Source of the DNA: Leifsonia soli
Lineage (GTDB): Bacteria > Actinomycetota > Actinomycetes > Actinomycetales > Microbacteriaceae
Assembly: GCF_013408745.1 (NCBI RefSeq)
Contig: NZ_JACCBJ010000001.1
Span: 3,286,001 to 3,350,000 of the forward strand
Length of the DNA stretch: 64,000 nucleotides
Reading direction: 5' to 3'
Within the stretch, counting starts at the first letter, position 1. Each line of letters begins with the position of its first letter. Under the pieces are notes generated by a model. The model worked only from the letters and a program-made list of their open reading frames with translations. It was not told the origin of the DNA and did not search any database. Shown one piece after another: positions 3,740 through 21,957 of the stretch. Position numbers and translations under genes: made by a program.

Positions 3740-3755
3740 CACCCGGCCCCTCCGC

Positions 3756-6008: not shown

Positions 6009-6014
6009 CCCGCG

Positions 6015-6667: not shown

Positions 6668-6827
6668 GGTGGCCTCCTTCGACGGATGGATCGTGTGCTC
6701 CCACCGTTACGCCCGGTCGCCGCCGTGGCAAGCCCCGACATGAAGCGGATGCGGGGAACCGCTGGCAGCATCTTTTCTGGCACTCCGTGTCATAATCAGC
6801 TCACACTCCGACGAGGAAGGGACGACG

Positions 6828-7838
6828 ATGACCGAATCGAAGCCGCTGACGGCGCACAGCACCATCGGCGAATGGCTGGATCACCCGGAGGGCGCTCCGC
6901 TCATCCAGGGGCTCCTCGCTCAGGCGGGAGTCGGCGAGGAGATGCTCGCGCCGGTGCGCGGCCTGCCGCTCCAGCAGTTGGTGGCGCTCAGCCAGGGCCA
7001 GCTGCCGCAGTCCGTCGTCGACGATCTGGTGCTGCAGGCCAACGGCGGCATCATGCCGGAGGACGTGGAGACCGGTTGGGTCGAGAAGGTCACCCCCGGC
7101 CGCTTCGACGGCCGCACGGTGATCGTCACCGGCGCAGCGTCGGGCATCGGGCGGGCGACCGCCTCCCGCATCGCCAGGGAAGGCGGACGGGTGATCGCGG
7201 TCGACATCTCCGCGGAGCGTCTGGACGACCTCGCCGCCGGATTCCCCGCCGGCACAGTGACCACCGTGGTCGGCGACATCACGAAGCAGGACGACATCGA
7301 CGCCATCGTCGCCGCCGCCGGCGACCGCATCGACGCGCTGGCCAACATCGCCGGGGTCAACGACGACTTCTCGCCGGCGCACGAGACCTCCGACGCCGTG
7401 TGGGAGCGCACCATCGGCATCAACCTGACCGGCGGGTTCAAGCTGACCCGCGCCGTGCTCCCCGCGATGCTGCGGGCCGGGGCCGGCTCGATCGTGAACG
7501 TGGCCTCGGAGGCCGGTCTCCGCGGCAACGCCTCCGGCACCGCATACACCGTCTCCAAGCACGGCGTCGTCGGCCTCACCCGCAGCACCGCGTTCATGTA
7601 CGGCCCGCAGGGCATCCGCGTCAACGCCGTGGCTCCGGGGGGAGTGGCCACCGGTATCCCGATGCCCGCGCACCCGTCGGAGTCCGGGACCGCCCGGCTC
7701 ACCCCGTTCCAGCAGCAGATCCCGACCATCGCGACGGCCGAGCAGCTGGCGGCGTCGATCACGTTCCTGCTCAGCGACGACGGCGTCAACATCAACGGCG
7801 CCGTGCTGCCGAGCGACGGCGGGTGGTCGGTTCAGTAG
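6828..7838 (+). CDS. Short-chain dehydrogenase/reductase with N-terminal helical extension
   Basis: Residues about 95-336 are a classical SDR: cofactor loop VTGAASGIGRATA, NNAG-equivalent ANIAGVND, catalytic Ser in VNVASEAG, and YTVSKHG with Tyr and Lys. VAVDIS after strand 2 (Asp) favours NAD over NADP. The first ~85 residues (STIGEWLDHPEGAPLIQGLL and RGLPLQQLVALSQGQL) are not part of an SDR. They resemble the short helical tail found at the C-terminus of many actinobacterial GH3 glycosidases. The gene has AGGAAGGGA before the ATG and is monocistronic. The substrate is unknown, perhaps a sugar or steroid-like alcohol. Confidence 0.88.
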   Translation: MTESKPLTAHSTIGEWLDHPEGAPLIQGLLAQAGVGEEMLAPVRGLPLQQLVALSQGQLPQSVVDDLVLQANGGIMPEDVETGWVEKVTPGRFDGRTVIVTGAASGIGRATASRIAREGGRVIAVDISAERLDDLAAGFPAGTVTTVVGDITKQDDIDAIVAAAGDRIDALANIAGVNDDFSPAHETSDAVWERTIGINLTGGFKLTRAVLPAMLRAGAGSIVNVASEAGLRGNASGTAYTVSKHGVVGLTRSTAFMYGPQGIRVNAVAPGGVATGIPMPAHPSESGTARLTPFQQQIPTIATAEQLAASITFLLSDDGVNINGAVLPSDGGWSVQ

Positions 7839-7887
7839 CAGGCATCCCGGGTACACCCGGTGACCGCGACCGGATACCGTTTCTGCT

Positions 7888-9519
7888 GTGTCGCGCATTC
7901 AGGAAGTCGCCCGGGAGTCCTTCGGCTGGAGCCGGCTGCGCCCGCGCTTGGCGGAGGCCATGGAGGTGCTCCTCGACGGGGGCGATGTGCTCGCCGTGAT
8001 GCCGACCGGTTACGGGAAGTCGTCGCTGTATCAGGTGACCGGCACCATCCTCGACGGCGTGACGATCGTCGTGTCTCCGCTGATCTCCCTGCAGGAGGAT
8101 CAGGTGCGTTCGCTCAGCGAGGCGACGGGGGTTCCGCGCGCGGTCGCCATCAACTCCTCCGCCGGGCAGCGTGAGCGCGAGCGCGACTGGGATGCGCTGA
8201 CGTCGGGGGAGGCTGGCTTCGCCTTCCTCGCTCCCGAGCAGCTCGCGAACCCGGAGGTGCGGGAGCGGCTCCGCGGCATCGACGTCTCGCTGTTCGCGGT
8301 GGACGAGGCGCACTGCGTGTCCTCCTGGGGTCACGACTTCCGGCCCGACTACCTGCTGCTCGGCGGCGTCATCGACGAGCTGGGGCATCCACCTGTCGTC
8401 GCGATGACCGCGACGGGAGCACCGCCCGTGCGCACGGAGATCGGCGAACGGCTCGGCCTCCGCCGCCCTCGGTTGTTCGCGACCGGCTTCGACCGGCCGA
8501 ACCTCCGGCTGGAGGTCGTGCGCCACGAGGAGGATGCGGCGAAGCGCGCGGCCGTCGTCGCGCAGGCGCGCCGGTCGGAGGGCGCCGGACTGGTCTACGT
8601 CTCGACCCGCAAGGACGCCGAGCTGTACGCCGAAGAGCTCCTGGAGGCCGGCATTCCGGCAGCGGCATATCACGCGGGCCTGCGTCGCGCCGAGCGTGAG
8701 GACGTCTACGAGCGCTTCATGGACGGCCGCGCCCGCGTGGTCACCGCGACCAGCGCCTTCGGCATGGGCATCGACAAGCACGACGTGCGCTCGGTCGTGC
8801 ACGCCTCGGTGACCGACTCCCTCGACAGCTACTACCAGGAGGCGGGACGCGCCGGGCGCGACGGCCGGCCGGCGCTGGTCACCCTCCACTACCGCCCGGA
8901 GGACTTCGCCCTCACCCGGTTCTTCTCCGGCGGCGGCCCGGACGCCGACGAGCTCGCGCGCGTCTTCGGGGCCATCGCCCTCGAACCGGGCATGACCCGG
9001 GTCGAGCTCGCGGAACGCGTCGACATCAGCGTGCGGTCCCTCGGCCGCCTGCTGGGGCTGCTGCGGGATGCCGGCGTGCTCTCCGGGAGCGACGACGACC
9101 TGCGCGCGGAACGCCTCGACCCCGGCGCGGCCGCAGCGAAGGCGGTCGCCGAAGCCGCATCCCGGCAGCGCATCGAGCACTCCAGGGCGCAGCTCATGCA
9201 GGAATATGCCGAGACCGGAATGTGCCGTAGGCAGTTCCTCCTCGGCTACTTCGGCGAGGAGCTGCCCGAGCCGTGCGGCAACTGCGACACCTGCTCGTCC
9301 GGCAGTGCACAGCGCTGGGCGGAGGAGCACGACGCGAGCCGCGAGGAGGCGTTCCCGCTGGCCGCGCGGGTGCGGCACGAGACGTGGGGCCCTGGCGTCG
9401 TGATGCACACCGACGCAGACCGCCTCACGGTGTTCTTCGACGAGGAGGGCTACAAGGTCCTGTCGCTCTCGGCCGTCACGGACGGCGGACTGCTCGAGGT
9501 TCTCGGCCCCACGGCCTGA
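7888..9519 (+). CDS. RecQ-like ATP-dependent DNA helicase
   Basis: This 543-residue superfamily 2 helicase has motif I VMPTGYGKSS (about 38-47), DEAH box VDEAHC, motif III VAMTATG, motif V TSAFGMGIDK and motif VI YYQEAGRAGRDG. The C-terminal zinc-binding cysteines of RecQ are present: CRRQFLLGYF, then CGNCDTC. No HRDC domain follows; instead there is a small domain (RVRHETWGPGVVMHTDADRL). It unwinds DNA 3' to 5' in repair and fork rescue. The GTG start gives MSRIQEVARESFGW. A separate longer RecQ may exist elsewhere; this is a short actinobacterial type. Confidence 0.92.
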   Translation: MSRIQEVARESFGWSRLRPRLAEAMEVLLDGGDVLAVMPTGYGKSSLYQVTGTILDGVTIVVSPLISLQEDQVRSLSEATGVPRAVAINSSAGQRERERDWDALTSGEAGFAFLAPEQLANPEVRERLRGIDVSLFAVDEAHCVSSWGHDFRPDYLLLGGVIDELGHPPVVAMTATGAPPVRTEIGERLGLRRPRLFATGFDRPNLRLEVVRHEEDAAKRAAVVAQARRSEGAGLVYVSTRKDAELYAEELLEAGIPAAAYHAGLRRAEREDVYERFMDGRARVVTATSAFGMGIDKHDVRSVVHASVTDSLDSYYQEAGRAGRDGRPALVTLHYRPEDFALTRFFSGGGPDADELARVFGAIALEPGMTRVELAERVDISVRSLGRLLGLLRDAGVLSGSDDDLRAERLDPGAAAAKAVAEAASRQRIEHSRAQLMQEYAETGMCRRQFLLGYFGEELPEPCGNCDTCSSGSAQRWAEEHDASREEAFPLAARVRHETWGPGVVMHTDADRLTVFFDEEGYKVLSLSAVTDGGLLEVLGPTA

Positions 9520-9589: not shown

Positions 9590-10246
9590 GTGACCTTCGA
9601 TCGCTCTCCTCTGCCGGCGATGCTGTGTGCGTCCGCGGTCCTCGCCCTCCTGACCGGGCTCGGGGCCCCGGCAGCGGCATCCGCCGCTCCGGCGCACGAG
9701 CCCTGCTCTGCGCAGAGCGACGTCTCGTCGTGCGACGCTGACGGCGACACGGTGCCCGACACCGTCGAGCGCGTGGTCGCCGGTACTGCCACGGGTGCCA
9801 CCGGCCGTGAGGACGCCGATCGCGACGGCGTGCCCGACTGGACCGAGGTGATGGCCTGCGGCACGGCCCGCTGCGCATCCCCGACCAAAGACAGCGTCGG
9901 CGACGGGATCCCCGACTACGCGCGGGTGCTCACCTGCGGTTCGGTGCGGTGCTTCACGGACAACGCCGACACCAACGGCAACGGCGTCCCGCGCTGGGCG
10001 AGCGTGGTCATCTGCGGGACGACGGGGTGCGCGACCGGTCACGAGGACTACGACGCAGACGGCGTCTCCGATGCGATCCAGCTCGCGGCCTGCGTGAAGC
10101 CACGGGGAGACCTCGCCTCGACGGGCCAGACCATCGCGATCTGGCTGATCATCGCGCTGGCGGTCGGGCTCATCCTGACGGGTGTGCTCCTCGCGCGGAA
10201 GCGCGCACTGTTCGCCGCCGCCGTCCGCTCCGGCGGGATGGCGTGA
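9590..10246 (+). CDS. Secreted LAxTG-anchored protein with thrombospondin-3-like calcium loops
   Basis: This 218-residue protein has a signal peptide (hydrophobic core MLCASAVLALLTGLG, cleavage after AASA). Its repeated acidic loops, such as DADGDTVPDTVE, DRDGVPDWTE and DYDADGVSDAIQ, are of the thrombospondin type-3 calcium-binding kind. Paired cysteines occur in CGTARC, CGSVRC and CGTTGC. Near the end LASTG, a transmembrane span and RKRAL form a class E sortase signal. The start is GTG. Its TGA overlaps the ATG of the RHS gene by one base (TGATG), so the two are translationally coupled. It probably acts on the cell wall with the RHS protein. Confidence 0.85.
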   Translation: MTFDRSPLPAMLCASAVLALLTGLGAPAAASAAPAHEPCSAQSDVSSCDADGDTVPDTVERVVAGTATGATGREDADRDGVPDWTEVMACGTARCASPTKDSVGDGIPDYARVLTCGSVRCFTDNADTNGNGVPRWASVVICGTTGCATGHEDYDADGVSDAIQLAACVKPRGDLASTGQTIAIWLIIALAVGLILTGVLLARKRALFAAAVRSGGMA

Positions 10247-13200
10247 TGCGCTGGGTGCGACCCCTGTTCCAGTGGGGAACGCGGGGAACCATCGGAGCCG
10301 TCGCTGCCGCCGTATTGACGCTGTCCGGAACCGTGACCCCTGCAGAGGCCTCCCCGGCGGAGAAGGCGCGGCGGATCGCTGCAGCCACCCTCTCCGAGGT
10401 CCGTGCCGCTTCATCCGAGCAGGCCGCCCGGGTCAAGAACGAGACCGAGCCGCCGCCACCGCAGGCGCAGGGCACCATCCGGCCCGAAACCGAATCGAGG
10501 GTGGCCGCGAAGGATCTCGGCGCCTCCGTCACGTTTTCGGGCAGGGACATCGAGTCGGCTCTCACGGTCCGCCTCGGCGCGGCGCCGGCGAACGCGCTTC
10601 GCGCGGCCACAGCCGAGGCGCCCGAACGCGGTGCGCCGGTGTCGGACCCGGTCGAGATCACGGCCACCGACGACCACGGCGATCAGGTGACCCAGTTCCC
10701 GGCCAAGCCCGTCAAGAAGCGGGGAGGAGGGGAGGACGGCCCGGTCGTCTCCGACGTCATCCCCGGTGTCTCCCTCGAATTGAAGCCCGATCTCGCGGCC
10801 GTCAGAGACAAGGATCTCGATCCCGCGACCCTGCAGATCTACACGCGGGAGGGCGCGGGCGAGCCGTGGACCGCGCTGCCGTCGTACTACGACACGAAGG
10901 CCGGCGTCGTGAAGGGGGTCTCGACGCACCTGTCCCAGTTCGTCGTCATCGGCATCCCGTTCCCGGTCCCGGACGGCCCCGTCATCGTGCTCGATCCGGA
11001 CAACGACGAAGGGCACGCGTCGACTCCTGCACCACCGGTCACCGAGCTCGCCTACAACATCCAGCTCGCCCAGCAGGTAGCGACGCTGCTGGAGCAGGAC
11101 TGCCAGGCCACCGTGAGGATCACGCGCCAAGACCCGAAGGCGCCCTTCGTCCCGCGCGGGGTCCGGGCGGGGATCGCGGCCGCGGCGAACCCCGCCGCGA
11201 CGATCGGCATCGGCTTCAACACGAACCAGGGAACCGCGTGGGGATCGCCCGCCGACGGCGGCTCGCAGGTGTACTCCCGCGGTGGGGCGGCCGACAACGC
11301 GCTCTCGGCGGCGCTGGTCGGCGTCCTTCCCACGTACACGACGCGGCCCGCCAAGCAGCTTCCGAACAACGGCAACTTCCCGGGCGACGAGTTCGCGGCG
11401 CTGCCGAACGCAGTGACGCACGTGGAGCCGTTGTTCCTCGACCACAACTACGACCGTCCGATCATCGACAACGGCATGGCTCATATCGCGGACGGCGTGC
11501 TGACCGGTCTCGGCGTCTACCTGGAGTCGCAGGGCTTCGACTGCACAGACCCGGTGGCCGGAGGCTGGCCGTCCCCGCCGTCTGCGGCCGAGATCGCCCG
11601 GTGGCGCCAGCTCGGTCACCAGAACCATCAGACGTATGGCGGTGAACCCTTCTCGTTCTCCACGGGCAACCTCATCGAGGACGAGAAGCTGTTCTCGCTC
11701 CCCGGGCCCGGGGGATCGAGCACCGACATGACGCTCACCTACAACTCGCAGGACGGCCGGCTGTCCCGTGTGGGCGCCGGCTGGTCGTTCGAGTGGGGAG
11801 CGCGCGCCCAGCGGTTCATCGACGGGTCGGTGATGGTCGTCCGGGGCGACGGGGCCTCCTTCGTGTTCACAGCGGACGGCCACGGCGGGTACACGCCCGC
11901 CGACCGAGGGGTACATCAGACGCTGGCAGAACGGCCCGGTGGAAGGCTCGAGCTGAGCGACGTCTCTGGGGAGACCTGGGTCTTCGACGCCTCCAACATC
12001 GACGGCATCGGCAACCTCATCTCGTACACGGACACGAAGGGTCACGCGACGACGCTCGCGTACGGACCCCCGGCCGACCGGAGGACGTCGCAGTTCCATC
12101 CCCTCGCATCCATCACGGATGCGGCCGGGCAGGTCATCGCTGTCGACTCGGATGCGCTGGGTCGCGTCACCGGGTTCACCCGCCCGGGCGGCGACCGATG
12201 GGGCCTCGCCTACGACGGCGCCGGCAACCTCACGACGATCACGCTGCCCGACGGTCGGACGCATGCCTTCACGTACGACGGGGCGCATCAGCTGCTGAGT
12301 GCGACCGACGCCACGGGCGCCGTGTACCTGAAGAACGAGTACGACGGTCAGGGCCGCGTCGTCAAGCAGTGGGATGTGCAGGGCAACCTCCGCACTCTCG
12401 ATTACTCCACGCCGGGTCAGACGACATACACGGACAACCTCGGTCGCGTCTCGGTGTACTTCTACGATGAGCGATCGCGGATCACCAAGGTGCGGCATCC
12501 CGACGGCACCACGGCGTCCTTCCGGTTCGATGCGGACGACAACGTCACCTCGTCGACGGACGAGAACGGCGCTCGCACGGCCTACTCCTACGATCTGTCC
12601 GGCAATCTGATCTCCGAGACGGCACCGGACGGTGTCGTCACCCGGTACACCTACACCCCGGCCGGCCAGGTCGCCACGAAGACCGACACCGGAGGTCCCA
12701 GTGGGTCCCCTCGAACCTGGACATACGACTACGACGCCGCAGCACGGGTGACCGCCGTGCACCAGCCGGACGGCACGGTCGTGCACCACGCGTACGACGC
12801 CGCCGGCAATCTGGTCTCCTCGAAGCAGCCGTCGGGTGCCACCACCACCTACGCCTACGACGCCGCGGGCCGGCTCGCCTCGCGGACCGATCCGGCAGGA
12901 CGTGTCTCCCGGTACACCTACGATGCCGCGGGACGTGTGGTTTCGCACGTCGACCCGGGCGGTCACGCCACGCGCTACAGCTGGGATTCGGGCGATCGGG
13001 TCGTCACCGCGACCGACGCCGCCGGCAACGCATTCCTATTCGGGTGGGAGCCGAACGATCACCTCGCCTCCGTGACCGACCCCACCGGCGCGGTGACGAG
13101 ATACGCGTGGGACGCGATGTTCCACCTGACCGAGTCGACGAGCCCGTCCGGAGGCGTCACCACCTACGGCTACACGGCCGAGGACGCCCTGTCGAAGCGT

Positions 13201-16200
13201 TCCGACCCGCTCGGCGGCACCACATCGTTCATCAGCGACGCGCGCGATCGGACGGTGAAGACCGTCGACCCGAATGGAGGCACCTGGAGCTACGCCTACG
13301 ACGGTGTGGGAAATCTGACCTCCGTCGTCTCCCCGGAGGGCGGGACGACGTCGTACGCCTACGACACCCGAGGCAACCTGACGATGGAGACGAACCCCGC
13401 CGGCGGAGAGACCCGGTACAGCTACGACAGCGTCGGGCGGCTCGTCAAGGAGACCGATCCGGATGGTGTGGCCACCTCCTATGCGTACGACGTGATGGAT
13501 CGCGTCGCGAGGATCACGGACGGCCGTGGCGAGCACACCGACCTCTCCTACGACCCGGATGGGAACCTGACCTCGGTCACCGATCGCGGCGGAACGGTGA
13601 CCGCCTATCGCTTCGACGCCTCCGGCCAGGTGGTCTCGCGGACGAGCCCCCTCGGCGAGGTGACCACCTTCGGGTACGACGCGGACGGCAATGTCACCTC
13701 GGTCACCGATGCGGCGGGGCGGACAACGACCTACTCCTATGACGCACTCGAGCGACTCGCTTCGGTGACGGACGCGGAGGGAAGCGCCACCCAGTACGCC
13801 TACGACCCGAACGGCCGCACCACCTCGGTCATCGACCCGAACGGCAACGTGACCGCCTTCGCCTACGACGCCGACGGGAACCAGGTGAGCACGACAGACC
13901 CGGTCGGAGGGGTGACCCGGTACGGATGGGACGCCGCCGGCAACCAGACCTCCCTCACCGACGCGCGCGGCCATCGCACCCTCTACGGCTACGACCCGGC
14001 GGGACAGCTCACCGCTGTCACGGAAGGCTACAAGCCGGGAGCGAAGGCGACTCCCGACGTGAACGTCGTGTCCACGTACGCCTACGACCGCGACGGCAAC
14101 CTCTCCGCGATCACCGATCCGAACGGGCACACCACCCGATACACCTCGGATACAGCGGGCCGGACGACGTCCGAGACGAATCCCGTCGGGAACACCACGA
14201 GCTGGATGTACACGGCGGCGGGCAGACTCGCGAAGACCACCGCAGGCACCGGGGCGACCACCGCTCTGACCTATGACAGGCGAGGCGACCTGGTGCGGCG
14301 GGATCAGGCGGGCTCGGTGGCGACGTATGAGTACGACGCCGAGGAGCGGTTGATCGCCATGACCGATCCGACCGGTGTCTCCGGCTGGATCTACGACAAG
14401 GCCGGGCGTGTCACCACCCAGATCGACCAGTCCGGTGGGCGGCTTGCCAGCGCGCATGACAAGGCGGGCCGGCTCGCGTCCATGACGCTGCCGACCGGGC
14501 AGAATCTGACGTACACGTACGACCGGGCGGGCCGCACCACGTCCCAGTCCTCGCCGTGGGGATCGCTCGCCTACGCGTGGGATCCCGCGGGCAATCTGAC
14601 CGAACTGCGACGTTCCACAGGCATCACCACGACCTACGGATACGACGGAGCGAACCGCGTCACGGATGTTCGGCATGCCACGCCCGCAGCGGCAGAAGGC
14701 GCCGCGCCGACGCCGTCACCCACGCCGGCCTCGTACGCGTCGGGCGACGCCGCGGCCGCGCAGTGCACCACGGTCGCCGGCTATCTCACCGCCCGCACCG
14801 CACCGGCCGCAGGCGAGAGCAGCGTGTGCACCCATGCGAACACGTATCTGAAGAGTCGGACTCTGCCGGAGGCCTCCCTGCCGGTGCCGGAGGGCGGTTC
14901 TCTCGCCTACCACTACGGCTACGACGTCGATGGCAACGTCACCGAGGCGACGCAGACGATCGCGGGTCCGTCGCCCGAGGGTGACCCGGGGGCGGGTACG
15001 CCGGTGCCGTCACCGGCCCCCACCGTCCCTCCGGTGTCCGCGCCGTCACCGAAGGTGGCGTCGGTCGCGTACGGGTACGACCGTCTCGACCGCCTTGCCA
15101 CGTCGAAGGCATCGTCGGGCGAGCAGAACTCGTACGGTTACGATGCCGCAGGCAACCGGACGGCCTGGTCGCGATCGGGGGCGAAGGATGGCGACTTCAC
15201 TCAGTCGGCCACGTTCAACGACGCCAACCAGCTGACGCAGTCCACGACCACCGGCTCCGGTCGCGGTGTCTCCGCCGGTGTCGCCTCGTATTCGTACGAC
15301 GGCGCAGGTAACCGGGTGTCGCAGTCGGTGGCAGGAGTCGGGACCTCGTTCGCGTTCAACGCGGCTGGTCAGACCAGCGCCGTGACGCGTGAGGGCCGGT
15401 CGACGTCGTACGCGTACGACGGTCTGGGCCGGCAGGCGGCGGTGACCGACCAGACGAAGTACGGCACCTCGATGACGCGGAACACATTCGACGGTGCCGA
15501 CGTGGTGCAGTCGAGCGTGTCGGGGCAGGGGACCACCACGCTGGTTCGCGATGCTGCGGGCGCGTTGGCCGAGCACGTGACGTCGACAGGCGTGGCGACG
15601 TGGGATCTGCTGGACGGTCTGGGTTCGACGGTCGCGGGTGCGAAGGCGGGTGCGGTGACCGAGCTGTCGTCCTACGACGACTGGGGTGGCCAGCGCTTCG
15701 AGTCCGGCGGTTGGTCGTCTCCGGAGTCGTACACGGGTCACGCGCAGGACGTGACGCAGGGGCAGGTGCACACCTTCGCCCGCAGCTACGACCCGGCGAC
15801 GGGCACGTGGACGACCCCGGACAGCTGGCGCGGCCTGCTGACCCAGCCCGAATCTCTCGCCCGCTACCGGTACGCGTGGAGCAACCCGACGACGTTCCTC
15901 GACCCGGACGGCCACAAGTGCGCGCCGCGCACGGGTGCCAGCGACGCGCTCCCTCTCGGGTGCGGCGCACCCCCGCACAAGGCATACCAGGACGTGAAGA
16001 TGCCGCCCGCGCCGCCCCCCTACGCCCCCGCGAAGAAGGACCCGAAAACCCCGGCGGCTACCGATCCCAAATCGAAGAGCGAAACGCAGAAGCGCCATGC
16101 CGAACGCGATCGCTGGGTGATCGTCGCGGATGTACTCACAATCGTGGGTGGTGTGTTTGGGTTCGCGTCGCTGATCCCAGGACCGCAGCAGCCTGTCCTT

Positions 16201-16449
16201 GCTGCGCTGGCGGCAGTGTCTTCGCTTGCGGGTACAGTCATTTCTTGCATTTTGGGCGGCGACCAACTCGCATCATGCGTCATCGGGGTTATCTTGTCGG
16301 CCATTCCATTCGTCGGGGCAAGTGCAAAGGCTTCTTTCCGCGGGATCATCAAGGATGCCGTCGATGGTGCCGTACAGGCTGTCGGCCGCATGGGTGATGG
16401 ACTGGGGGCGGTGACCGGTACCGGTGACCTGGTGAAGAGAGCGCGATAG
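10246..16449 (+). CDS. RHS/YD-repeat polymorphic toxin with degenerate amidase-like domain
   Basis: This 2067-residue secreted protein begins with a signal peptide (core GAVAAAVLTLSGTV, then PAEASPAEKA). Residues about 246-433 follow the Amidase_3 (N-acetylmuramoyl-alanine amidase) pattern but have lost two zinc histidines (see finding). From about 475 comes the RHS entry domain (FSFSTGNLIEDEKLFSLPGP), then several dozen YD repeats (YDxxGNL...) to about 1800. The conserved RHS end RYRYAWSNPTTFLDPDG lies near 1873-1890. The last ~177 residues are the variable tip: a Pro/Lys-rich linker, then two or three hydrophobic spans (VLTIVGGVFGFASLIPG, CVIGVILSAIPFVGASAKA), suggesting a membrane-acting toxin. 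Base composition falls sharply in the tip. It resembles WapA-type contact toxins of Gram-positives. Immunity candidates follow with no gap. Confidence 0.93.
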   Translation: MRWVRPLFQWGTRGTIGAVAAAVLTLSGTVTPAEASPAEKARRIAAATLSEVRAASSEQAARVKNETEPPPPQAQGTIRPETESRVAAKDLGASVTFSGRDIESALTVRLGAAPANALRAATAEAPERGAPVSDPVEITATDDHGDQVTQFPAKPVKKRGGGEDGPVVSDVIPGVSLELKPDLAAVRDKDLDPATLQIYTREGAGEPWTALPSYYDTKAGVVKGVSTHLSQFVVIGIPFPVPDGPVIVLDPDNDEGHASTPAPPVTELAYNIQLAQQVATLLEQDCQATVRITRQDPKAPFVPRGVRAGIAAAANPAATIGIGFNTNQGTAWGSPADGGSQVYSRGGAADNALSAALVGVLPTYTTRPAKQLPNNGNFPGDEFAALPNAVTHVEPLFLDHNYDRPIIDNGMAHIADGVLTGLGVYLESQGFDCTDPVAGGWPSPPSAAEIARWRQLGHQNHQTYGGEPFSFSTGNLIEDEKLFSLPGPGGSSTDMTLTYNSQDGRLSRVGAGWSFEWGARAQRFIDGSVMVVRGDGASFVFTADGHGGYTPADRGVHQTLAERPGGRLELSDVSGETWVFDASNIDGIGNLISYTDTKGHATTLAYGPPADRRTSQFHPLASITDAAGQVIAVDSDALGRVTGFTRPGGDRWGLAYDGAGNLTTITLPDGRTHAFTYDGAHQLLSATDATGAVYLKNEYDGQGRVVKQWDVQGNLRTLDYSTPGQTTYTDNLGRVSVYFYDERSRITKVRHPDGTTASFRFDADDNVTSSTDENGARTAYSYDLSGNLISETAPDGVVTRYTYTPAGQVATKTDTGGPSGSPRTWTYDYDAAARVTAVHQPDGTVVHHAYDAAGNLVSSKQPSGATTTYAYDAAGRLASRTDPAGRVSRYTYDAAGRVVSHVDPGGHATRYSWDSGDRVVTATDAAGNAFLFGWEPNDHLASVTDPTGAVTRYAWDAMFHLTESTSPSGGVTTYGYTAEDALSKRSDPLGGTTSFISDARDRTVKTVDPNGGTWSYAYDGVGNLTSVVSPEGGTTSYAYDTRGNLTMETNPAGGETRYSYDSVGRLVKETDPDGVATSYAYDVMDRVARITDGRGEHTDLSYDPDGNLTSVTDRGGTVTAYRFDASGQVVSRTSPLGEVTTFGYDADGNVTSVTDAAGRTTTYSYDALERLASVTDAEGSATQYAYDPNGRTTSVIDPNGNVTAFAYDADGNQVSTTDPVGGVTRYGWDAAGNQTSLTDARGHRTLYGYDPAGQLTAVTEGYKPGAKATPDVNVVSTYAYDRDGNLSAITDPNGHTTRYTSDTAGRTTSETNPVGNTTSWMYTAAGRLAKTTAGTGATTALTYDRRGDLVRRDQAGSVATYEYDAEERLIAMTDPTGVSGWIYDKAGRVTTQIDQSGGRLASAHDKAGRLASMTLPTGQNLTYTYDRAGRTTSQSSPWGSLAYAWDPAGNLTELRRSTGITTTYGYDGANRVTDVRHATPAAAEGAAPTPSPTPASYASGDAAAAQCTTVAGYLTARTAPAAGESSVCTHANTYLKSRTLPEASLPVPEGGSLAYHYGYDVDGNVTEATQTIAGPSPEGDPGAGTPVPSPAPTVPPVSAPSPKVASVAYGYDRLDRLATSKASSGEQNSYGYDAAGNRTAWSRSGAKDGDFTQSATFNDANQLTQSTTTGSGRGVSAGVASYSYDGAGNRVSQSVAGVGTSFAFNAAGQTSAVTREGRSTSYAYDGLGRQAAVTDQTKYGTSMTRNTFDGADVVQSSVSGQGTTTLVRDAAGALAEHVTSTGVATWDLLDGLGSTVAGAKAGAVTELSSYDDWGGQRFESGGWSSPESYTGHAQDVTQGQVHTFARSYDPATGTWTTPDSWRGLLTQPESLARYRYAWSNPTTFLDPDGHKCAPRTGASDALPLGCGAPPHKAYQDVKMPPAPPPYAPAKKDPKTPAATDPKSKSETQKRHAERDRWVIVADVLTIVGGVFGFASLIPGPQQPVLAALAAVSSLAGTVISCILGGDQLASCVIGVILSAIPFVGASAKASFRGIIKDAVDGAVQAVGRMGDGLGAVTGTGDLVKRAR

Positions 16450-16812
16450 ATGACTGAGAAGCGGATTCCAGTGCTCATGCGAGGCCCGTCCGCCCGAACT
16501 CTGTTCAAGATCGCTCGGCTAGGAAATGCGGGCTATCTTGTCTGCCTGGCAGCTGCACTAGTCGTGGTGTTGATAGGTCGCAGTGATTCATCGATGGCTC
16601 AGGCGCTGTCGGTTCTTCTGATCGGCTTCGCGATTGATCTCGCTCTGTGGGTTGCTTTCGCCTCGGCAATAGCGCTGGAGGTGCGTCACGGCTACACCAC
16701 CCTGGATGGCCGCTTTCGCCACCTTCCTCAGCTCGAATCCGGCACCGGAACGATTCTCCGCGCGGCAGGGGAACCGTACGCCGAGCCAGATGAGCGGAAT
16801 TGGAGGCAGTGA
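16450..16812 (+). CDS. Two-TM protein, candidate immunity protein for the RHS tip
   Basis: The ATG follows the RHS stop codon immediately, so the two are coupled. This 120-residue protein has two membrane spans (GYLVCLAAALVVVLIG and LSVLLIGFAIDLALWVAFASAIAL) and a soluble C-terminal tail (RHGYTTLDGRFRHLPQ). No family is recognised. By position it is the first candidate for immunity to the RHS tip, and a membrane location fits a hydrophobic, membrane-acting tip. Lower GC than the RHS core suggests it moved with the tip. Confidence 0.7.
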   Translation: MTEKRIPVLMRGPSARTLFKIARLGNAGYLVCLAAALVVVLIGRSDSSMAQALSVLLIGFAIDLALWVAFASAIALEVRHGYTTLDGRFRHLPQLESGTGTILRAAGEPYAEPDERNWRQ

Positions 16813-16814
16813 CT

Positions 16815-17330
16815 ATGAATCCTTGGGTGGTCATAGCGGCGGTAGTGCTGATCGCCGCGCTTTGGTGGGCGGTCAAGGCCACCATCTGGCGGCATGACAT
16901 TCGGCAAAGGATCAGTTCGATTCGTCGGTCGAACCCAGCGGCGCTGATCACATCCGCCCAGGTTTCGGCCTCGACACATCGCGCGCTTCGTCGAATCGCA
17001 CGTGAATCAGGCGGCCGTTTCGTTCGAACTGGGGCTTTCTATTCACTAGTAGCGACGCCCGGCGAACTTCGGCTTGTCGGCGGAGCCAACCACCCCTACA
17101 CAATTGCGTCTTTTCCGGCAAGCGATATCAGAGACGGTCGAATAGGGAAGACCAGCTGGGTTTATGTCGATTACACGACGCTCTTCGTCGGCATCAAGAC
17201 TGCCGGGACTACGTTCGAACTCCCCATTCGGATAAACGGAACCGGCGAGAATGCGATGTTTCCCGCCAGCCAGGCCTGGGCGGGCTCAAGGTGGGAGAAG
17301 ATCCTCCAGCTACTCGGAGCGGACAGTTGA
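16815..17330 (+). CDS. Membrane-anchored protein of unknown function in RHS cassette
   Basis: This 171-residue protein has one N-terminal membrane span (VVIAAVVLIAALWWAV), a basic stretch, then a mixed alpha/beta soluble domain (LVATPGELRLVGGANHPYTI ...). The ATG at 16815 lies 8 nt after GGAGG; a GTG at 16809 overlapping the previous stop is less likely. It may be a second immunity or accessory gene of the tip. No family is recognised. Confidence 0.65.
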   Translation: MNPWVVIAAVVLIAALWWAVKATIWRHDIRQRISSIRRSNPAALITSAQVSASTHRALRRIARESGGRFVRTGAFYSLVATPGELRLVGGANHPYTIASFPASDIRDGRIGKTSWVYVDYTTLFVGIKTAGTTFELPIRINGTGENAMFPASQAWAGSRWEKILQLLGADS

Positions 17331-17566
17331 CGGACGGGAACACTTCCCAGTTGACCGAGGGAGAGACCGTGCAGCGTCGAGTTGAGGATTGGGTGGCGGA
17401 GACCATCAGGCACGCATCCACAGCGTCGGGAATCTCGGGCGACGCTTTCGGCTTTGTGAGGGGATGGTTAGCGGTTGCACTCGTCATACGAACGAACTCG
17501 ATTATTCGGGGCCGCAGGTCTTGCTTACGCCGCACGGAATACGGATGTCTCGGCGATGATGAATGA
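17327..17566 (+). CDS. Small hypothetical ORF, probably part of a frameshifted cassette gene
   Basis: A TTG start overlapping the previous stop opens a 79-residue frame (MTDGNTSQLTEGETVQRRVE). The first ~50 residues look protein-like, then the sequence becomes arginine-rich and random. In another frame, starting within 17475, the following gene continues with a plausible stretch (LFGAAGLAYAARNTDVSAMM). I think these were one gene, broken near 17470. No known family. Confidence 0.35.
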   Translation: MTDGNTSQLTEGETVQRRVEDWVAETIRHASTASGISGDAFGFVRGWLAVALVIRTNSIIRGRRSCLRRTEYGCLGDDE

Positions 17567-18008
17567 GAGACCCTCGCTACCTGCGCCGATCAAGGGATTT
17601 GCGCGATTCGTTCTCGACCACGGATTCGAGGTCCAGCGAAAGGACTACGACGAGTCCTTCAACTCGCTATTCCTCCTTGTCCGCGAGGCTTGCACCGTCA
17701 CGATCCTTCAAGACCGAGGTGCGTGGCACATCGATGTTGGCCGAAGAGGGCAGCAGGTGCGCTTTGCGGACTGGCAAGAGTTCCTTACAGGGCGGCGCGT
17801 GATCGAAACGGGCGAGCCGAGCGAAGAGGACGACTTCTATCGGCGCCACTGGGCGGAGGTGGTCGGAGTGACAGGGGACGAAGCCCGATTCTCGTCGCTC
17901 CCGACTGGTGCGGTCGACATCTCGGCGGGGAGACTCGCAGCCATCAAAGCCGACTATGAAGCACGAAGATGGGTCGGCAGGATGCGGGACGATGACGGAT
18001 CGAACTAA
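17556..18008 (+). CDS. Hypothetical protein in RHS cassette array, possible immunity protein
   Basis: This 150-residue soluble protein contains FARFVLDHGFEVQRKDYDES, then a beta-rich segment (LLVREACTVTILQDRGAWHIDV) and an acidic middle (GEPSEEDDFYRRHW). The ATGATG pair at 17556 is the first good start; the frame extends upstream to 17475 and probably belonged to the preceding broken ORF. Composition and size are typical of immunity proteins, but no family is recognised. It overlaps the next gene. Confidence 0.55.
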   Translation: MMNERPSLPAPIKGFARFVLDHGFEVQRKDYDESFNSLFLLVREACTVTILQDRGAWHIDVGRRGQQVRFADWQEFLTGRRVIETGEPSEEDDFYRRHWAEVVGVTGDEARFSSLPTGAVDISAGRLAAIKADYEARRWVGRMRDDDGSN

Positions 18009-18627
18009 CGCGTATCCGGCGAACATCGATGGGTTTCGTGAGGTCCTCGGGGAGGGCAGCCGCCTCATCTCGATTGAGCGCCGCCTACCGGACTGGGTAT
18101 TCACAAAGCACGGAGCAACGCTTGCGTATTGTCAGTATTCGCACGTCATCGAAGGGTCGTTTCGGCCGGTCCTGTCCGCTCTCGGTCAGGCCCACGGAGA
18201 TGAGTACATCACGGTCGTACAGCTTGACCCCGCACCGGAAACCTATTTCGACTGGTACGACTGTTTCCCAGCGATGCGCTTACGAGCGATCGACATCGAT
18301 GCGACGTATTGGCACGCGATGTCGTTTGAGCCGCAGGGGGACATCACAGGCGCGCCCATCAACATCGCAAACGTTGTGGGGGTTGCTGGAAGCTCTGGGA
18401 GATGGGCCGTGTGGGGCGAGCGGCGCTGGGACCTCGGGATCCTATATAGCGAGATTCCACATGGCGCGTGGCTCGATGCGGGCGTCCCGTTCGTTTCGCC
18501 TGAGGAGGCGATTCGAGACTTTACGCAGGTCGGGGAGAAACGCTCGCCCGCGGACTTCAGCCGCGAGATCTTCGCACGCAATTACTTTGAGCGACCTTAT
18601 GCCACGAGCAAGTCGGGCATCGGCTGA
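17992..18627 (+). CDS. Hypothetical protein, possible immunity protein
   Basis: This 211-residue soluble protein begins MTDRTNAYPANIDGFREVLG at an ATG that overlaps the end of the preceding gene. It is rich in aromatic residues (YFDWYDCFP, RWAVWGERRWDLGILY), typical of immunity proteins, and has no membrane segment or signal. Its lower GC fits the surrounding array. The function is inferred only from position. Confidence 0.6.
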   Translation: MTDRTNAYPANIDGFREVLGEGSRLISIERRLPDWVFTKHGATLAYCQYSHVIEGSFRPVLSALGQAHGDEYITVVQLDPAPETYFDWYDCFPAMRLRAIDIDATYWHAMSFEPQGDITGAPINIANVVGVAGSSGRWAVWGERRWDLGILYSEIPHGAWLDAGVPFVSPEEAIRDFTQVGEKRSPADFSREIFARNYFERPYATSKSGIG

Positions 18628-18653
18628 GCGCATGCGTCTGCGGGGGAGGTGAC

Positions 18654-18755
18654 GTGAGAGCCATAACCCTCGGGAGCTCACGTGCTATCGGGCTCGGCTT
18701 CATCGGAGTTGGGCTCCTCGCCCTTCCGTTTACGATCCTCGACGACCTCGACTGA
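18654..18755 (+). pseudogene. Truncated copy A of a two-TM small protein family
   Basis: A GTG with GGGGGAGG 4 nt upstream starts a 33-residue product ending SRAIGLGFIGVGLLALPFTILDDLD. This matches the second membrane span and C-terminus of the full-length member at 20871-21086. The first span and linker are missing. It is one of three copies in 2.4 kb and is probably a remnant. Confidence 0.55.
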
Positions 18756-18763
18756 CCCGAAAA

Positions 18764-18982
18764 ATGCTCCACGCTGGAAATCGATTTGAGATCGCCATAA
18801 CCCCCGGGCTATTGCTTGCTATCGGGCTCGGCTTTATCGGAGTTGGGCTCTTCGTCCATCCGTTCGCGATTCTCGACAGCCTCGGCGGACACGACGATGC
18901 AATGCGCGCCGCGCACCGGGTTTCATCGTCGGTTCCGCCACCGTGCTGCAATCATCGCTACGTCTTGGATGACGAGGACTGA
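18764..18982 (+). pseudogene. Truncated copy B of the two-TM family, run on into RHS-tip-like sequence
   Basis: The first ~41 residues (LHAGNRFEIAITPGLLLA, then GLGFIGVGLFVHPFAILD) match the full-length member at 20871-21086 from its linker onward. The expected stop after ILD is lost and the frame reads into unrelated sequence. There, in another frame at about 18897-18925, the DNA reads MQCAPRTG, like the RHS junction KCAPRTG at 15916-15936. This is a fusion of an immunity-gene end with a displaced RHS fragment. Confidence 0.55.
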
Positions 18983-19335
18983 TGGCCGAGTCGCTAGCGC
19001 CACCATTTGATCAGCGGGTTGCGCACCAAATGACTTCGATTTCGTCGCTGCTTGTCGCGCCGGGGCAGCACCGGGCGTACGACATCATCCTCGAGGAAGT
19101 GAATGCGTTCGTCGATCTTTTCGACTTTGCGTACGCAGCTAGGGCCTATCGCGTGTGGACCGCCATAACTGACCTTGTGAGCGCTCCTGGAGGGCCGGGA
19201 TCCGATGAACTCTGCGAGCTTGTTGCCCGAGAGGCGGCGACAGACTGGCTCGTCGTCGACGTCTGCTCGCGCGAATCGATCGATGCCTACTTCGACCGTT
19301 GGGCCGTGCGAACAGGTCTCACGAATGAAAATTGA
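18982..19335 (+). CDS. Hypothetical protein in cassette array
   Basis: This 117-residue, mostly helical soluble protein (ILEEVNAFVDLFDFAYAARA, AREAATDWLVVDVCSRESID) has no known domain. The ATG at 18982 directly follows the end of the copy-B frame. Size, acidic character and position suggest an orphan immunity protein whose toxin tip has been lost. Its end overlaps the next start by 11 bp. Confidence 0.6.
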   Translation: MAESLAPPFDQRVAHQMTSISSLLVAPGQHRAYDIILEEVNAFVDLFDFAYAARAYRVWTAITDLVSAPGGPGSDELCELVAREAATDWLVVDVCSRESIDAYFDRWAVRTGLTNEN

Positions 19336-20002
19336 GGGAGGTTCCCCGATTCCTGAGAAGAATCGCACACGAAGGCCACACGCCGTCTGGATAGCAGTTC
19401 TGGCTGTCTGGATTGCTTCGGCAATGAGTATGTGCGCCGCACTCGTAGCGGGCTTTAGCGCGTATGACGTTGTCGATCAAGACGTTGGAAAGGCGCCATT
19501 CCTCGTCGTAGTCGGTGTCCTTCTGTTGTTCACTCTCGCCCCGGCCGCGGCCGGCGCCTTCGCGCTCTCGGGCCATCGGACGAGCCGAATCTTCATCCTT
19601 CTGATCGGCATCGTGGCAGCACTCACAAGCTCTGGCTCGATTCTTGCCTGGTCGAGCACAACGCTCATCCTCCTCAGCGGAGTTCTGCTGCTCCTACCGG
19701 CTTCATCCGCATACTTTCGTTGGAGTAAGGACCGGCGGCCGAGTCAAGAGATGGCAGGAAGACGCGTGCTGACGCTGAGTGAGGCATACATTTGGTTGGC
19801 CTTTTTCGGCATTGCAGGCGCACATCTTTTCTATGTGCGGCGCGCCTGGCAAGGGGTCTTGTACTTGGGGATGTTCATTCTCGCCTTGACGGCGGTGCCA
19901 AGTCCTATTGGGGTGGTTCTCCTCATCACGCTCGTCGCGCTGATGTGCGTCGACGTCTCACGTTTGCGCTCCTGGACGCAAGACGAGCGGCACAGCACCT
20001 GA
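19325..20002 (+). CDS. Multi-spanning membrane protein with C-terminal TM2 domain
   Basis: This 225-residue protein has about six membrane spans. The last two, with LSEAYIWLAFFGIAGAHLFY and VRRAWQGVLYLG between and around them, fit a TM2 domain. The remaining spans (VWIAVLAVWIASAMSMCAAL, FLVVVGVLLLFTLAPAAA and others) are unassigned. ATG at 19325 overlaps the previous gene. TM2 proteins often sit beside secreted effectors and immunity genes; the role here is unknown. Confidence 0.7.
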   Translation: MKIEGGSPIPEKNRTRRPHAVWIAVLAVWIASAMSMCAALVAGFSAYDVVDQDVGKAPFLVVVGVLLLFTLAPAAAGAFALSGHRTSRIFILLIGIVAALTSSGSILAWSSTTLILLSGVLLLLPASSAYFRWSKDRRPSQEMAGRRVLTLSEAYIWLAFFGIAGAHLFYVRRAWQGVLYLGMFILALTAVPSPIGVVLLITLVALMCVDVSRLRSWTQDERHST

Positions 20003-20113
20003 TCGCACCAACGACGCGCCTCGATCTACCGATATTGCCAATCGGAGAGCGGTGGACCCGTCTGCCTGTGACCAGCCCTCTTCGCTGGTTGAGCTGGAGT
20101 CTCTGGGGGAAGC

Positions 20114-20431
20114 GTGCCGCGGGGTCGGCGGAGTCGATGCGCACCAGCCGTCCCGAGGACGCAAGCATCGGGCGTCGTGACTCTCCTGCCGCTGGGGTTT
20201 CTTCCTGTTGGGTGGTGCCGTCCGGTCGTGCCGGGGGTGGTGGATTTGGCCCTCGATGTAACAGGCATCGGAGCGGCACTCGGATTGACGGTCGGCGCCA
20301 TTTCAGTGGGTATGACCTTCGCGGCCACGTTGATCTATTGCACGGCCGGCCCGCGAGGGCAAGCCCGGCTCGATGGTATGTGGGTGGGCCCGCAGACGAC
20401 ACAATCGTTTGGACTTGGTGATGACTTTTGA
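20114..20431 (+). CDS. Weak hypothetical ORF with hydrophobic segment
   Basis: The 418 bp between 20003 and 20420 hold no convincing gene. The best frame is this 105-residue ORF with a hydrophobic middle (LDVTGIGAALGLTVGAISVG). The start is uncertain and no ribosome-binding site is clear. It could be a decayed toxin tip or chance. It overlaps the next gene by 11 bp. Confidence 0.25.
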   Translation: MPRGRRSRCAPAVPRTQASGVVTLLPLGFLPVGWCRPVVPGVVDLALDVTGIGAALGLTVGAISVGMTFAATLIYCTAGPRGQARLDGMWVGPQTTQSFGLGDDF

Positions 20432-20666
20432 GGCGATTGTCGGCCTGGCGATCTCAGCCCCATTGGCAATCGTGGTGGGAGCCGTGATGGTGGTGTGGCG
20501 CAAGAGGATCGCCGAGTGGAACCGTCGATTCTTTGCCACGGGGGGAGACCGCTATCGGCCATTCGTGCGAGCTTCGACCCCGGGATCTGTTGCGGCCGTG
20601 GGGTGCTTCATTCTGGGGATCGGGGTTTTCAACGGTGCGCGCCTGATCTTCGCGGTTGTCACCTGA
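20421..20666 (+). CDS. Two-TM small membrane protein, immunity candidate
   Basis: This 81-residue protein has span 1 (IVGLAISAPLAIVVGAVMVV), a basic cytoplasmic linker (WRKRIAEWNRRFF ... RYRPFVRAS), then TPGSVAAVGCFILGIGVFNG as span 2. The layout (span, basic linker, T-P-G, span with GxGV) is shared with the ORFs at 20871 and 21409. I infer a family of membrane immunity proteins. Confidence 0.6.
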   Translation: MTFEAIVGLAISAPLAIVVGAVMVVWRKRIAEWNRRFFATGGDRYRPFVRASTPGSVAAVGCFILGIGVFNGARLIFAVVT

Positions 20667-20842
20667 TGAGTGACATCGTCACGGTCGGCGCGGCGCACCG
20701 CTGCATGTTCGTTGCCGGGGTAGGCGGCTACGGGCAAGCATCCTGGGTGACGTGGACTTCCCCCTGGATCGAAGGGAGAGTCGCATTCGGCGGTCAGATG
20801 GGATGTCGAGTCGGTGAGAAGAATTCGACCAAGCTCTTCTAG
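20666..20842 (+). CDS. Small hypothetical ORF, 58 residues
   Basis: An ATG overlapping the preceding TGA (TGATG) starts a 58-residue soluble ORF (MSDIVTVGAAHRCMFVAGVG). The coupling favours translation but the sequence has no recognisable features. It may be a remnant of a larger cassette gene. Confidence 0.3.
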   Translation: MSDIVTVGAAHRCMFVAGVGGYGQASWVTWTSPWIEGRVAFGGQMGCRVGEKNSTKLF

Positions 20843-20870
20843 GGGGAGACGTGACCGACGCCGGAACCTG

Positions 20871-21086
20871 ATGCTCTCGGGCTTCGTGTGCATAGCGGTA
20901 GGCGTGATGATCGTGCTCTTGCGAAGATCAGTCGCTTCGCAGATGAAGCGAGAGGTGCGTGACCTCCACGCGGGAAATCGATTTGAGAACGCCCTGACTC
21001 CCGGGCTATTGCTTGCTGTCGGGCTCGGCTTAATCGGAGTTGGTTTCTTCGTCCTTCCGTTTGCGATCCTCGATGGCCTCGACTGA
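20871..21086 (+). CDS. Full-length copy C of the two-TM family, immunity candidate
   Basis: This 71-residue protein has span 1 (LSGFVCIAVGVMIVLL), a basic linker (RRSVASQMKREVRDLHAGNR), then LTPGLLLAVGLGLIGVGFFV as span 2, ending ILDGLD. Copies A (18654) and B (18764) are partial duplicates at both DNA and protein level. The sequence after its stop is an orphan RHS-tip junction. No strong ribosome-binding site is visible before the ATG, which overlaps the stop of a 6-codon GTG frame. Confidence 0.6.
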   Translation: MLSGFVCIAVGVMIVLLRRSVASQMKREVRDLHAGNRFENALTPGLLLAVGLGLIGVGFFVLPFAILDGLD

Positions 21087-21093
21087 CCCGACC

Positions 21094-21264
21094 ATGCAAT
21101 GCGCGCCGCACAAGGCACACCAAGACGTGAATAGGCCGCCCACGCCGCCGCCTGATCCGCCCGCGAAAAGGTCCCGAAAACACCGAAAGGTAGAGGCCCG
21201 GACTCGAAGAACATGCCCTCCGCTCTCCAGCCGGACTTCCGCCCTGCCAGCGCTCCGTACCTAG
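21094..21264 (+). pseudogene. Orphan RHS tip-junction fragment
   Basis: Read from the ATG at 21094, CAPHKAHQDVNRPPTPPPDP and the PAKRSRK that follows align with PPHKAYQDVKMPPAPPPYAP and PAKKDPK of the intact RHS protein. The DNA matches 15974-16050 over about 80 bp with scattered differences. The fragment lacks the RHS core and any usable start context and decays after ~40 codons. It marks where a former toxin tip was displaced. Confidence 0.75.
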
Positions 21265-21408
21265 GCCGAACCCAACCGTGCAGTCCCGGTGTCGTTCCAA
21301 CTCGCATGGACGTCTTTCGCTACCTGAGGTATTCCAGAGGCAGGGCTGACGAACGACGTGGGTGCTTGCCGAAGCGGTCTCATCTCGAGGTTCCGGTAGA
21401 GGGTCGCC

Positions 21409-21642
21409 ATGGACATTGAAGAGGTCGCAATGCTGGCCGCGGGATGTGTTGCCCCTCTCGCTGGATTGGGGGTCATAGTCTTCCGGGACGCGACGGCCAA
21501 ACGCAATCGGGCCAACGTGGAAACCAAGCGCGGAAAGTGGTCCCCAGGGCTCTCGTCAGAATCCACCCCAACGCGAATGGTTGGAGTGGGAATTGCCTGT
21601 CTCGGAGTGGGCGTCATTCTCGTATTCAGATCTCTCAGCTGA
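21409..21642 (+). CDS. Two-TM small membrane protein, immunity candidate
   Basis: This 77-residue protein has span 1 (VAMLAAGCVAPLAGLGVIVF), a Lys/Arg-rich linker (RDATAKRNRANVETKRGKWS), then TPTRMVGVGIACLGVGVILV as span 2. It shares the layout of the proteins at 20421 and 20871 but little identity. It lies 145 bp after the orphan RHS junction, as expected for the immunity gene of that lost tip. A GAGGG-type site precedes the ATG. Confidence 0.6.
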   Translation: MDIEEVAMLAAGCVAPLAGLGVIVFRDATAKRNRANVETKRGKWSPGLSSESTPTRMVGVGIACLGVGVILVFRSLS

Positions 21643-21957
21643 CCTGCAATGCCGACGCTGACAAGTGGGTTTCGCATCGAAGAGGAATCATCCTCAAGGC
21701 AGGGTTCAGGACCCGCCTCGAATAGAGGCACACCGATTCCGCGATTCCGCGTCACGAATTCGCGACAGCTCGCGTCTTCATGTGTGAAGGGTTCGGGCGA
21801 ACGGGATCGGACCCCTTCAGGCGATGTGGCGGGGAGTACGGGAACTGTCCCGCCACATCGCCCCCCACCACCGTCGAAACCGATGATCGGGTGCGCCGCG
21901 GACCGTTCCGCAAACAGGCGTCGCCCCCTATGCTGTTCCGGGGGAAAGGGGAGTCTG
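21643..21957. other. Intergenic region at the end of the cassette array
   Basis: No convincing gene is seen in these 315 bp. They hold the hairpin listed at 21822-21860. Composition rises back to the chromosomal average here, so the boundary of the accessory island is probably within or just after this stretch. Confidence 0.4.
21822..21860. terminator. Strong hairpin, candidate terminator
   Basis: A 12-bp perfect inverted repeat (CGATGTGGCGGG and CCCGCCACATCG) encloses 15 nt. There is no T-run on either side, so it may be a U-less terminator of the array or a protein-binding site. It lies between the last array gene and the DHFR-like gene. Confidence 0.45.

What the first reader, a model, noticed from the sequence alone, without database searches (positions are those of the whole stretch)
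16450..21660. RHS toxin-tip/immunity cassette array with orphan tip junctions and a triplicated two-TM immunity family
Behind the RHS gene lie about 5 kb of lower-GC small ORFs. Two places repeat the RHS junction: MQCAPRTG at ~18897 and CAPHKAHQDVNRPP at 21094, the second matching the intact tip linker over ~80 bp. Each follows directly after the end of a two-TM gene copy (B, C), and a new set of small genes follows each junction. This is the layout expected if new tips are recombined in at the conserved junction and older tip-immunity modules are pushed downstream and decay. At least three modules can be read.
Basis: partly seen in the sequence, partly recalled or inferred. Interest (0 to 1): 0.8.

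Follow-up and report, generated by a model that had tools for sequence, protein, structure and literature searches.

The report
Displaced toxin-tip and immunity gene array
Behind a large toxin-delivery gene lies a string of broken toxin tips and still-open small genes that look like their antidotes, the trace of repeated toxin swapping, a kind of arrangement already known from other bacteria.

Summary
Behind an intact RHS/YD-repeat gene (tip 15910-16449), 16.45-21.65 kb is a low-GC array of small genes with broken toxin tips between them. The junction at 21094 is certain (E 7e-16 to the own linker); the one at 18897 is real but only about 24 bp. Of the 'triplicated' two-TM genes, copies A and B keep only the second TM half; two diverged copies exist (20421, 21409).

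Sister species G019 has the same site: conserved flanks, a 91-93% identical linker, then abruptly another tip and immunity gene and no array. With composition-corrected statistics, 14 orphan tip pieces were found in 31 loci (none on the reverse strand, none with reversed queries); 11 of 14 are 3' ends only. Several array genes are homologs of genes that directly follow tips elsewhere.

This is RHS C-terminal displacement with retained immunity genes: a new member of a known kind. Protection by the orphan genes, and a membrane-acting tip, are inferred.

The parts
9949..16449 (+). RHS/YD-repeat polymorphic toxin gene (intact; true start probably about 10243, judged by eye)
   Evidence: PF05593 E 2e-183, DUF6531 E 1.5e-10; TIGR03696 Rhs_assc_core residues 1909-1989 ends at the junction
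15871..16053 (+). conserved linker/junction (NPTTFLDPDGHKCAP...PPHKAYQDVKMPP)
   Evidence: 91-93% DNA identity to sister species, then no similarity from 16054
15910..16449 (+). module 0: intact tip, hydrophobic class M
   Evidence: alignment A2 with 10 other tips; 4 TM-like segments
16450..16812 (+). module 0: immunity candidate imm0a (120 aa, two TM-like segments)
   Evidence: starts at the base after the tip stop; homologs in 9 other loci, in L036, L041, L042 30-232 nt behind intact tip stops and in L039, L040 behind tip 3' stubs
16815..17330 (+). module 0: immunity candidate imm0b (171 aa, one TM + PH/PTB-like domain)
17363..17470 (+). module 1: 3'-end stub of a class M tip
   Evidence: HMM built without the window tip, E 9.4e-9, positions 161-196/200; E 1.1e-8 with composition correction
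17556..18008 (+). module 1: small soluble ORF, 150 aa
   Evidence: no homolog besides itself at E 1e-3
17992..18627 (+). module 1: orphan immunity candidate, 211 aa
   Evidence: homologs in 6 of 393 other class genomes; in 3 of those 6 (G647, G783, G721) the match begins 12-36 nt behind the stop of a toxin ORF; PT-HINT shown in G647 and G721, G783's tip is 95.6% identical to G647's
18654..18755 (+). two-TM copy A, second TM half only
   Evidence: D1 repeat; 80.6% of 108 nt to copy B
18764..18880 (+). two-TM copy B, second half, stop lost
   Evidence: D1, 87% to copy C over 149 nt
18897..18920 (+). junction B (minimal)
   Evidence: end of D1 repeat; 16/17 nt to RHS junction (D11)
18982..19335 (+). 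module 3: small ORF, 117 aa
   Evidence: no homolog besides itself at E 1e-3
19325..20002 (+). module 3: orphan membrane immunity candidate (multi-TM)
   Evidence: relatives directly behind the tips of L033 and L044, also in L038 and L041; profile of these four scores 28.1 bits against 14.6 for the best of 500 shuffles
20228..20431 (+). module 4: 3'-end stub of the tip class intact in the sister species
   Evidence: 68% of 56 aa, E 6e-20; HMM E 2.9e-21
20421..20666 (+). module 4: two-TM gene, start overlaps the stub end
   Evidence: profile A1; 34% of 73 aa to the 21409 gene, E 2e-5
20672..20806 (+). module 5: possible class X tip stub (not significant)
   Evidence: best full-class-X HMM hit but E 1.4; E 2 with the C-terminal HMM
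20856..21086 (+). module 5: two-TM copy C, both TMs
   Evidence: profile E 2e-26, row in the profile
21094..21257 (+). module 6: junction C and tip 5' end, frameshifted
   Evidence: E 6.6e-16 to own linker; HMM E 1.9e-8 and 2.5e-7 in two frames
21334..21396 (+). module 6: tip 3' end, class X (last about 20 aa)
   Evidence: top hit, E 0.0047 in 6.1 kb, 0.036 in 64 kb, profile positions 52-71/72
21409..21642 (+). module 6: two-TM immunity candidate
   Evidence: 37-39% to L038, L039, L033 homologs; this family directly follows class X tip ends in 5 of 14 non-window genus hits

Best explanation
The locus is an RHS polymorphic-toxin gene whose C-terminal tip has been replaced several times. Incoming DNA carrying the conserved linker, a new tip and its immunity genes pairs with the resident linker (homologous anchor); the other end joins without homology inside or just behind the resident tip. 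The new tip is thereby put in frame with the RHS core, the old tip is reduced to its 3' end or lost, and the old immunity gene, lying just behind it, is kept and moved downstream. Repeated, this gives one intact tip with its cognate genes followed by an array of stubs and orphan immunity genes, which may still protect against kin and neighbours carrying the older tips. Shown by sequence: a different tip behind the same linker in a sister species, stubs of recognisable tip classes, homology of several array genes to genes that follow tips elsewhere. Inferred: the recombination route, the immunity function, and that the present tip acts on membranes.
For: Sharp replacement block 16054-21746 between collinear flanks. 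Tip stubs at 17363-17470 and 20228-20398, and 5' plus 3' tip ends around 21094-21396. Orphan tip pieces in 31 loci of genus and family (window included): without composition correction 19 on the + strand at E<1e-5, 0 on the - strand, 0 with reversed tips, 11 of 19 being 3' ends only; with correction 16, 0 and 0, of which two are not orphans (L038 is its own intact tip, L045 an RHS tip cut by a contig end), leaving 14, 11 of them 3' ends only and 3 middle pieces. Adjacency elsewhere: imm0a/imm0b behind intact class M tips and behind stubs; two-TM gene 3-17 nt behind class X tip ends; 19325 relatives behind tips of L033 and L044; 17992 homologs behind toxin ORFs. Nine array ORFs stay open while the recognised displaced tips are all broken.
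Against: The gene behind stub 1 (17992) and behind stub 4 (two-TM, 20421) is not of the family that follows the best-matching intact tip in relatives (L038/L039; G019), so some stub-gene pairs are mismatched. Two array ORFs (17556, 18982) have no homologs found. The 19325 relationship is weak: with composition correction only L038 passed E 1e-4 in a locus-wide search. Junction B is only about 24 bp. Module 5's stub is not significant. No strain of the same species and no functional data. 9 of the 14 non-window two-TM hits in the genus do not directly follow a class X tip; in 6 of them (G020, G008 twice, G016, G014 twice) no ORF with three or more YD motifs was seen on the same strand in the stretch fetched.
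Confidence: 0.87

Rival explanations
1. Local tandem duplication of a membrane-protein gene plus random decay, with no tip exchange.
For: Copies A, B and C of the two-TM gene are 80-87% alike in DNA over 108-149 nt and lie within 2.5 kb.
Against: The array genes belong to several unrelated families; tip stubs of at least two classes lie between them; the sister species differs from the linker on. Duplication explains A, B and C only.
Confidence: 0.04
2. A polyimmunity locus in the sense of Zhang et al. 2012: immunity genes collected on their own, not left behind by tip exchange. Such extended loci are reported from some actinobacteria (passages).
For: Several unrelated immunity-like genes in one orientation, some overlapping; two ORFs without homologs found.
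Against: By that paper's description such loci are never interrupted by toxin genes or cassettes (passages); here tip stubs and junctions lie between the genes.
Confidence: 0.08
3. A silent archive from which tips are put back onto the RHS core by recombination between linkers.
For: Junction C is 83% identical to the resident linker; such a switch in Salmonella is cited by Kirchberger et al..
Against: No recognised displaced tip in the window is whole; the 5' and 3' ends of module 6 span about 300 nt, against 678 nt in the whole class X tip of L033, and are frameshifted. In G017 (L033) a whole tip with core does sit downstream, so this may apply there.
Confidence: 0.05

Closest known systems
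rhs C-terminal displacement (Jackson et al. 2009, PMC2935791; passages read)
   Same: Conserved core, variable tip, strings of dissociated tip fragments behind the intact gene, different GC
   Different: The held text has no occurrence of 'gram-positive' or 'actinobacteri'; there fragments carry core sequence, here most are 3' ends without it
Orphan CdiA-CT/CdiI and Rhs modules (Poole et al. 2011, PMC3150448; passages read)
   Same: Junction-bearing orphan tips followed by an immunity gene; homology units that run from one junction to the next, comparable to the 149-nt repeat here; motif PxxxxDPxGL close to PTTFLDPDGH
   Different: There tested orphan tips are functional; here the recognised ones are broken
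Immunity gene arrays by sequential effector displacement, Vibrio cholerae T6SS (Kirchberger et al. 2017, PMC5361080; section 13 and passages read)
   Same: Old effector lost, in one case its 3' end shifted back, old immunity gene kept and moved downstream; homology-facilitated illegitimate recombination proposed
   Different: T6SS loci of a Gram-negative; here an RHS gene of an actinobacterium
Two-TM immunity families Imm-CdiI and Imm17 (Zhang et al. 2012, PMC3482391; table passages read)
   Same: Small proteins with two TM helices at polymorphic-toxin or polyimmunity loci
   Different: No Pfam or NCBIfam model reached its cut-off for the window's two-TM genes
Tse5, pore-forming Rhs effector of Pseudomonas (PMC9637101, abstract and outline)
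   Same: Rhs protein with a TM-bearing tip
   Different: No sequence relation found; pore formation here is only a guess

Membership tests
RHS/YD polymorphic toxin | YD/RHS repeats and RHS-associated core ending just before the tip | tested here: met
   PF05593 E 2e-183; TIGR03696 to residue 1989
RHS/YD polymorphic toxin | Variable tip behind a conserved junction among relatives | tested here: met
RHS/YD polymorphic toxin | Cognate immunity gene directly behind the tip | tested here: inconclusive
   conserved adjacency of imm0a/imm0b with class M tips; neutralisation not testable here
RHS orphan-tip array by C-terminal displacement | Tip fragment with junction sequence downstream of the intact gene | tested here: met
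   junction C; junction B minimal
RHS orphan-tip array by C-terminal displacement | Small ORF behind each tip fragment | tested here: met
RHS orphan-tip array by C-terminal displacement | Same site, different tip in a close relative | tested here: met
   G019, (species level, not strain level)
RHS orphan-tip array by C-terminal displacement | Orphan immunity genes neutralise the displaced tips | not testable with these tools
   needs co-expression
Polyimmunity locus (Zhang 2012) | Immunity genes not interrupted by toxin genes or cassettes | tested here: not met
   tip stubs at 17363, 20228, 21094-21396
Pore-forming Rhs tip (Tse5-like) | TM segments in the tip | tested here: met
   four Kyte-Doolittle segments in 68-142 of 179 aa
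Pore-forming Rhs tip (Tse5-like) | Sequence or fold relation to Tse5 | tested here: inconclusive
   profile A2 against PDB sequences: best E 0.49, other proteins; tip model pLDDT 60, not searched
Pore-forming Rhs tip (Tse5-like) | Forms pores | not testable with these tools
   bench only

The most novel reading that the evidence does not exclude
Leifsonia RHS loci are an actinobacterial case of immunity memory: exchange anchored in the linker preferentially leaves a 3' tip stub plus an intact immunity gene, and the current tips belong to an undescribed membrane-acting family (class M: a GPNSQNDxxDRH-like motif in many members, then hydrophobic helices) held in check by a two-gene immunity, a small two-TM protein plus a membrane-anchored PH/PTB-like protein.
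Probability: 0.35. Interest if true: 0.55.

Novelty: new member of a known kind. Interest (0 to 1): 0.4.

Why it matters
It extends RHS tip displacement with retained immunity genes to Leifsonia, and the excess of 3'-only stubs (11 of 14 orphan pieces) is sequence evidence on the recombination route. The tip and immunity candidates have no family name (for the window's tip no Pfam model, and for its small ORFs no Pfam or NCBIfam model, reached the cut-off), so they are concrete candidates for toxin-immunity tests in Gram-positive bacteria.
Full report
WHAT IS THERE. The window lies in a single-contig genome of 3.92 Mb. Five contigs of its genus-mates have the same lengths as named Leifsonia records, so the genus is taken as Leifsonia (inference). 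An intact RHS/YD gene ends at 16449. From there to about 21.65 kb GC falls to 0.58-0.64 and third-position GC to 0.62-0.73. Nine open small genes lie on the + strand, several overlapping or adjacent by a few bases.

REPEATS. The own linker recurs at 21106-21185; the only other match in the genome is 28 bp at E 0.004. A 149-nt repeat joins the second half of the two-TM gene with the start of the junction at 18767-18915 and 20964-21112 (87%), with a third copy at 18633 (62%) that runs into copy B rather than a junction. Two-TM copies A and B are halves; B has lost its stop codon.

SISTER SPECIES. G019 has the same neighbourhood: flanks 87-93% identical in DNA, RHS gene 80%, the last 180 nt before 16050 at 91%, no similarity from 16054 on. 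Its tip, its immunity candidate (191 aa) and the rest up to the flank at 21747 differ, and no relative of the array genes was found in its place. This is tip replacement at the linker, seen directly.

STUBS. Tips of relatives were collected from 31 loci including the window. Profiles of these tips find, in the six-frame translation of 15.9-22 kb, the intact tip, a class M 3' end at 17363-17470 (E 9.4e-9 with the window's tip left out), the 3' end of the G019 class at 20228-20398 (E 2.9e-21) and its 5' end at 21100-21257 in two frames (E 1.9e-8, 2.5e-7). A 3' end of a further class, X, lies at 21334-21393 just before the two-TM gene at 21409 (E 0.0047). Module 6 therefore shows a tip 5' end and a tip 3' end spanning about 300 nt, where the whole class X tip of L033 has 678 nt, with an intact two-TM gene behind it.

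COGNATE GENES ELSEWHERE. imm0a has homologs in nine other loci; in L042, L041 and L036 the match starts 30, 78 and 232 nt behind an intact tip stop, and in L040 and L039 just behind class M 3' stubs. imm0b follows in the same order in L036, L039, L040 and L045, reversed in L046. The two-TM family was found in 13 of 28 genus genomes (18 matches, 4 in the window) and in 39 of 398 family genomes. Of the 14 non-window genus matches (two of them rows of the query profile), 5 lie directly behind a class X tip end: G021 behind an intact 2335-aa RHS protein, G017 behind a core-bearing second RHS ORF, G015, G022 (cut by a contig end, weaker), and G023 behind a stub; 3 more (G010, G024, G025) lie 1.2-3.1 kb behind an RHS tip; 6 have no ORF with three or more YD motifs on the same strand in the fetched stretch. 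The gene at 19325 is related to genes directly behind the tips of L033 and L044 (the L044 RHS core is itself frameshifted) and to genes in L038 and L041; the relation is weak in single comparisons (BLASTP E 4e-7 to 5e-5 against these four; only L038 at E 8e-5 in the locus-wide corrected search) but their profile scores it 28.1 bits against 14.6 for the best of 500 shuffles. The gene at 17992 is not found in the other 27 genus genomes and has 3 other homologs in the large protein set, but 6 of 393 other genomes of the class have one; in 3 of these 6 it lies 12-36 nt behind a polymorphic-toxin ORF, with a PT-HINT domain shown for G647 and G721 and a 95.6% identical tip for G783. So the locus holds immunity candidates for about four tip classes.

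HOW IT WORKS. The linker is the best conserved stretch of the RHS gene between the two species (180-nt blocks), which fits its use as homologous anchor. The far breakpoint is evidently not homologous: with composition correction 11 of 14 orphan tip pieces in 31 loci are 3' ends only (uncorrected 11 of 19). This is the route proposed for Vibrio immunity arrays (PMC5361080). Jackson et al. proposed a circular intermediate for rhs (PMC2935791); junction-bearing module 6, and the core-bearing orphans in L033 and L037, fit that route, so both may act. Protection by orphan genes is inferred from their open frames next to broken tips and from precedent (orphan CdiI in E. coli EC93 is produced and protects; PMC3150448).

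THE TIP. The 11 class M tips are 179-226 aa, proline-rich, then hydrophobic; the window's has four TM-like segments, a poor helical model and no Pfam family over its cut-off. Membrane proteins as immunity candidates fit a membrane target. This is suggestive only; class X tips show no such segments.

CAVEATS. Stubs 1 and 4 are followed by genes of other families than those behind their nearest intact relatives, so the joints there may be later rearrangements. Two ORFs have no homologs found (that search needs shared 5-residue words). Species-level comparison stands in for strain-level comparison.

VERDICT. Real, well explained, and a new member of a known kind: RHS C-terminal displacement with retained immunity genes, here in Leifsonia.

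Noticed in passing
G000:C1:1896076-1896297 (outside the window): A second RHS/YD gene (ORF 2091 aa, - strand) in the same genome.
   Followed up: no
window 9590-10246: Gene directly upstream of and overlapping the RHS reading frame: aspartate-rich repeats and a tail resembling a sortase sorting signal (LASTG, TM, basic end; recognised by eye).
   Followed up: no
L037 (G021), reverse orientation, about 5134-8471: Orphan modules headed by scraps of RHS core (GNRVSQSV...GYNPAGQTT), one fused to a tip 3' end; could tell the recombination route in detail.
   Followed up: partly
L033 (G017), reverse orientation, 3323-4894: Second, core-bearing RHS ORF with a whole class X tip and a two-TM gene behind the main RHS gene.
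   Followed up: partly
L032 3709-6640: In the sister species the array's place is taken by other genes, among them an L36-like ribosomal protein and a secreted protease-like gene (named by eye).
   Followed up: no
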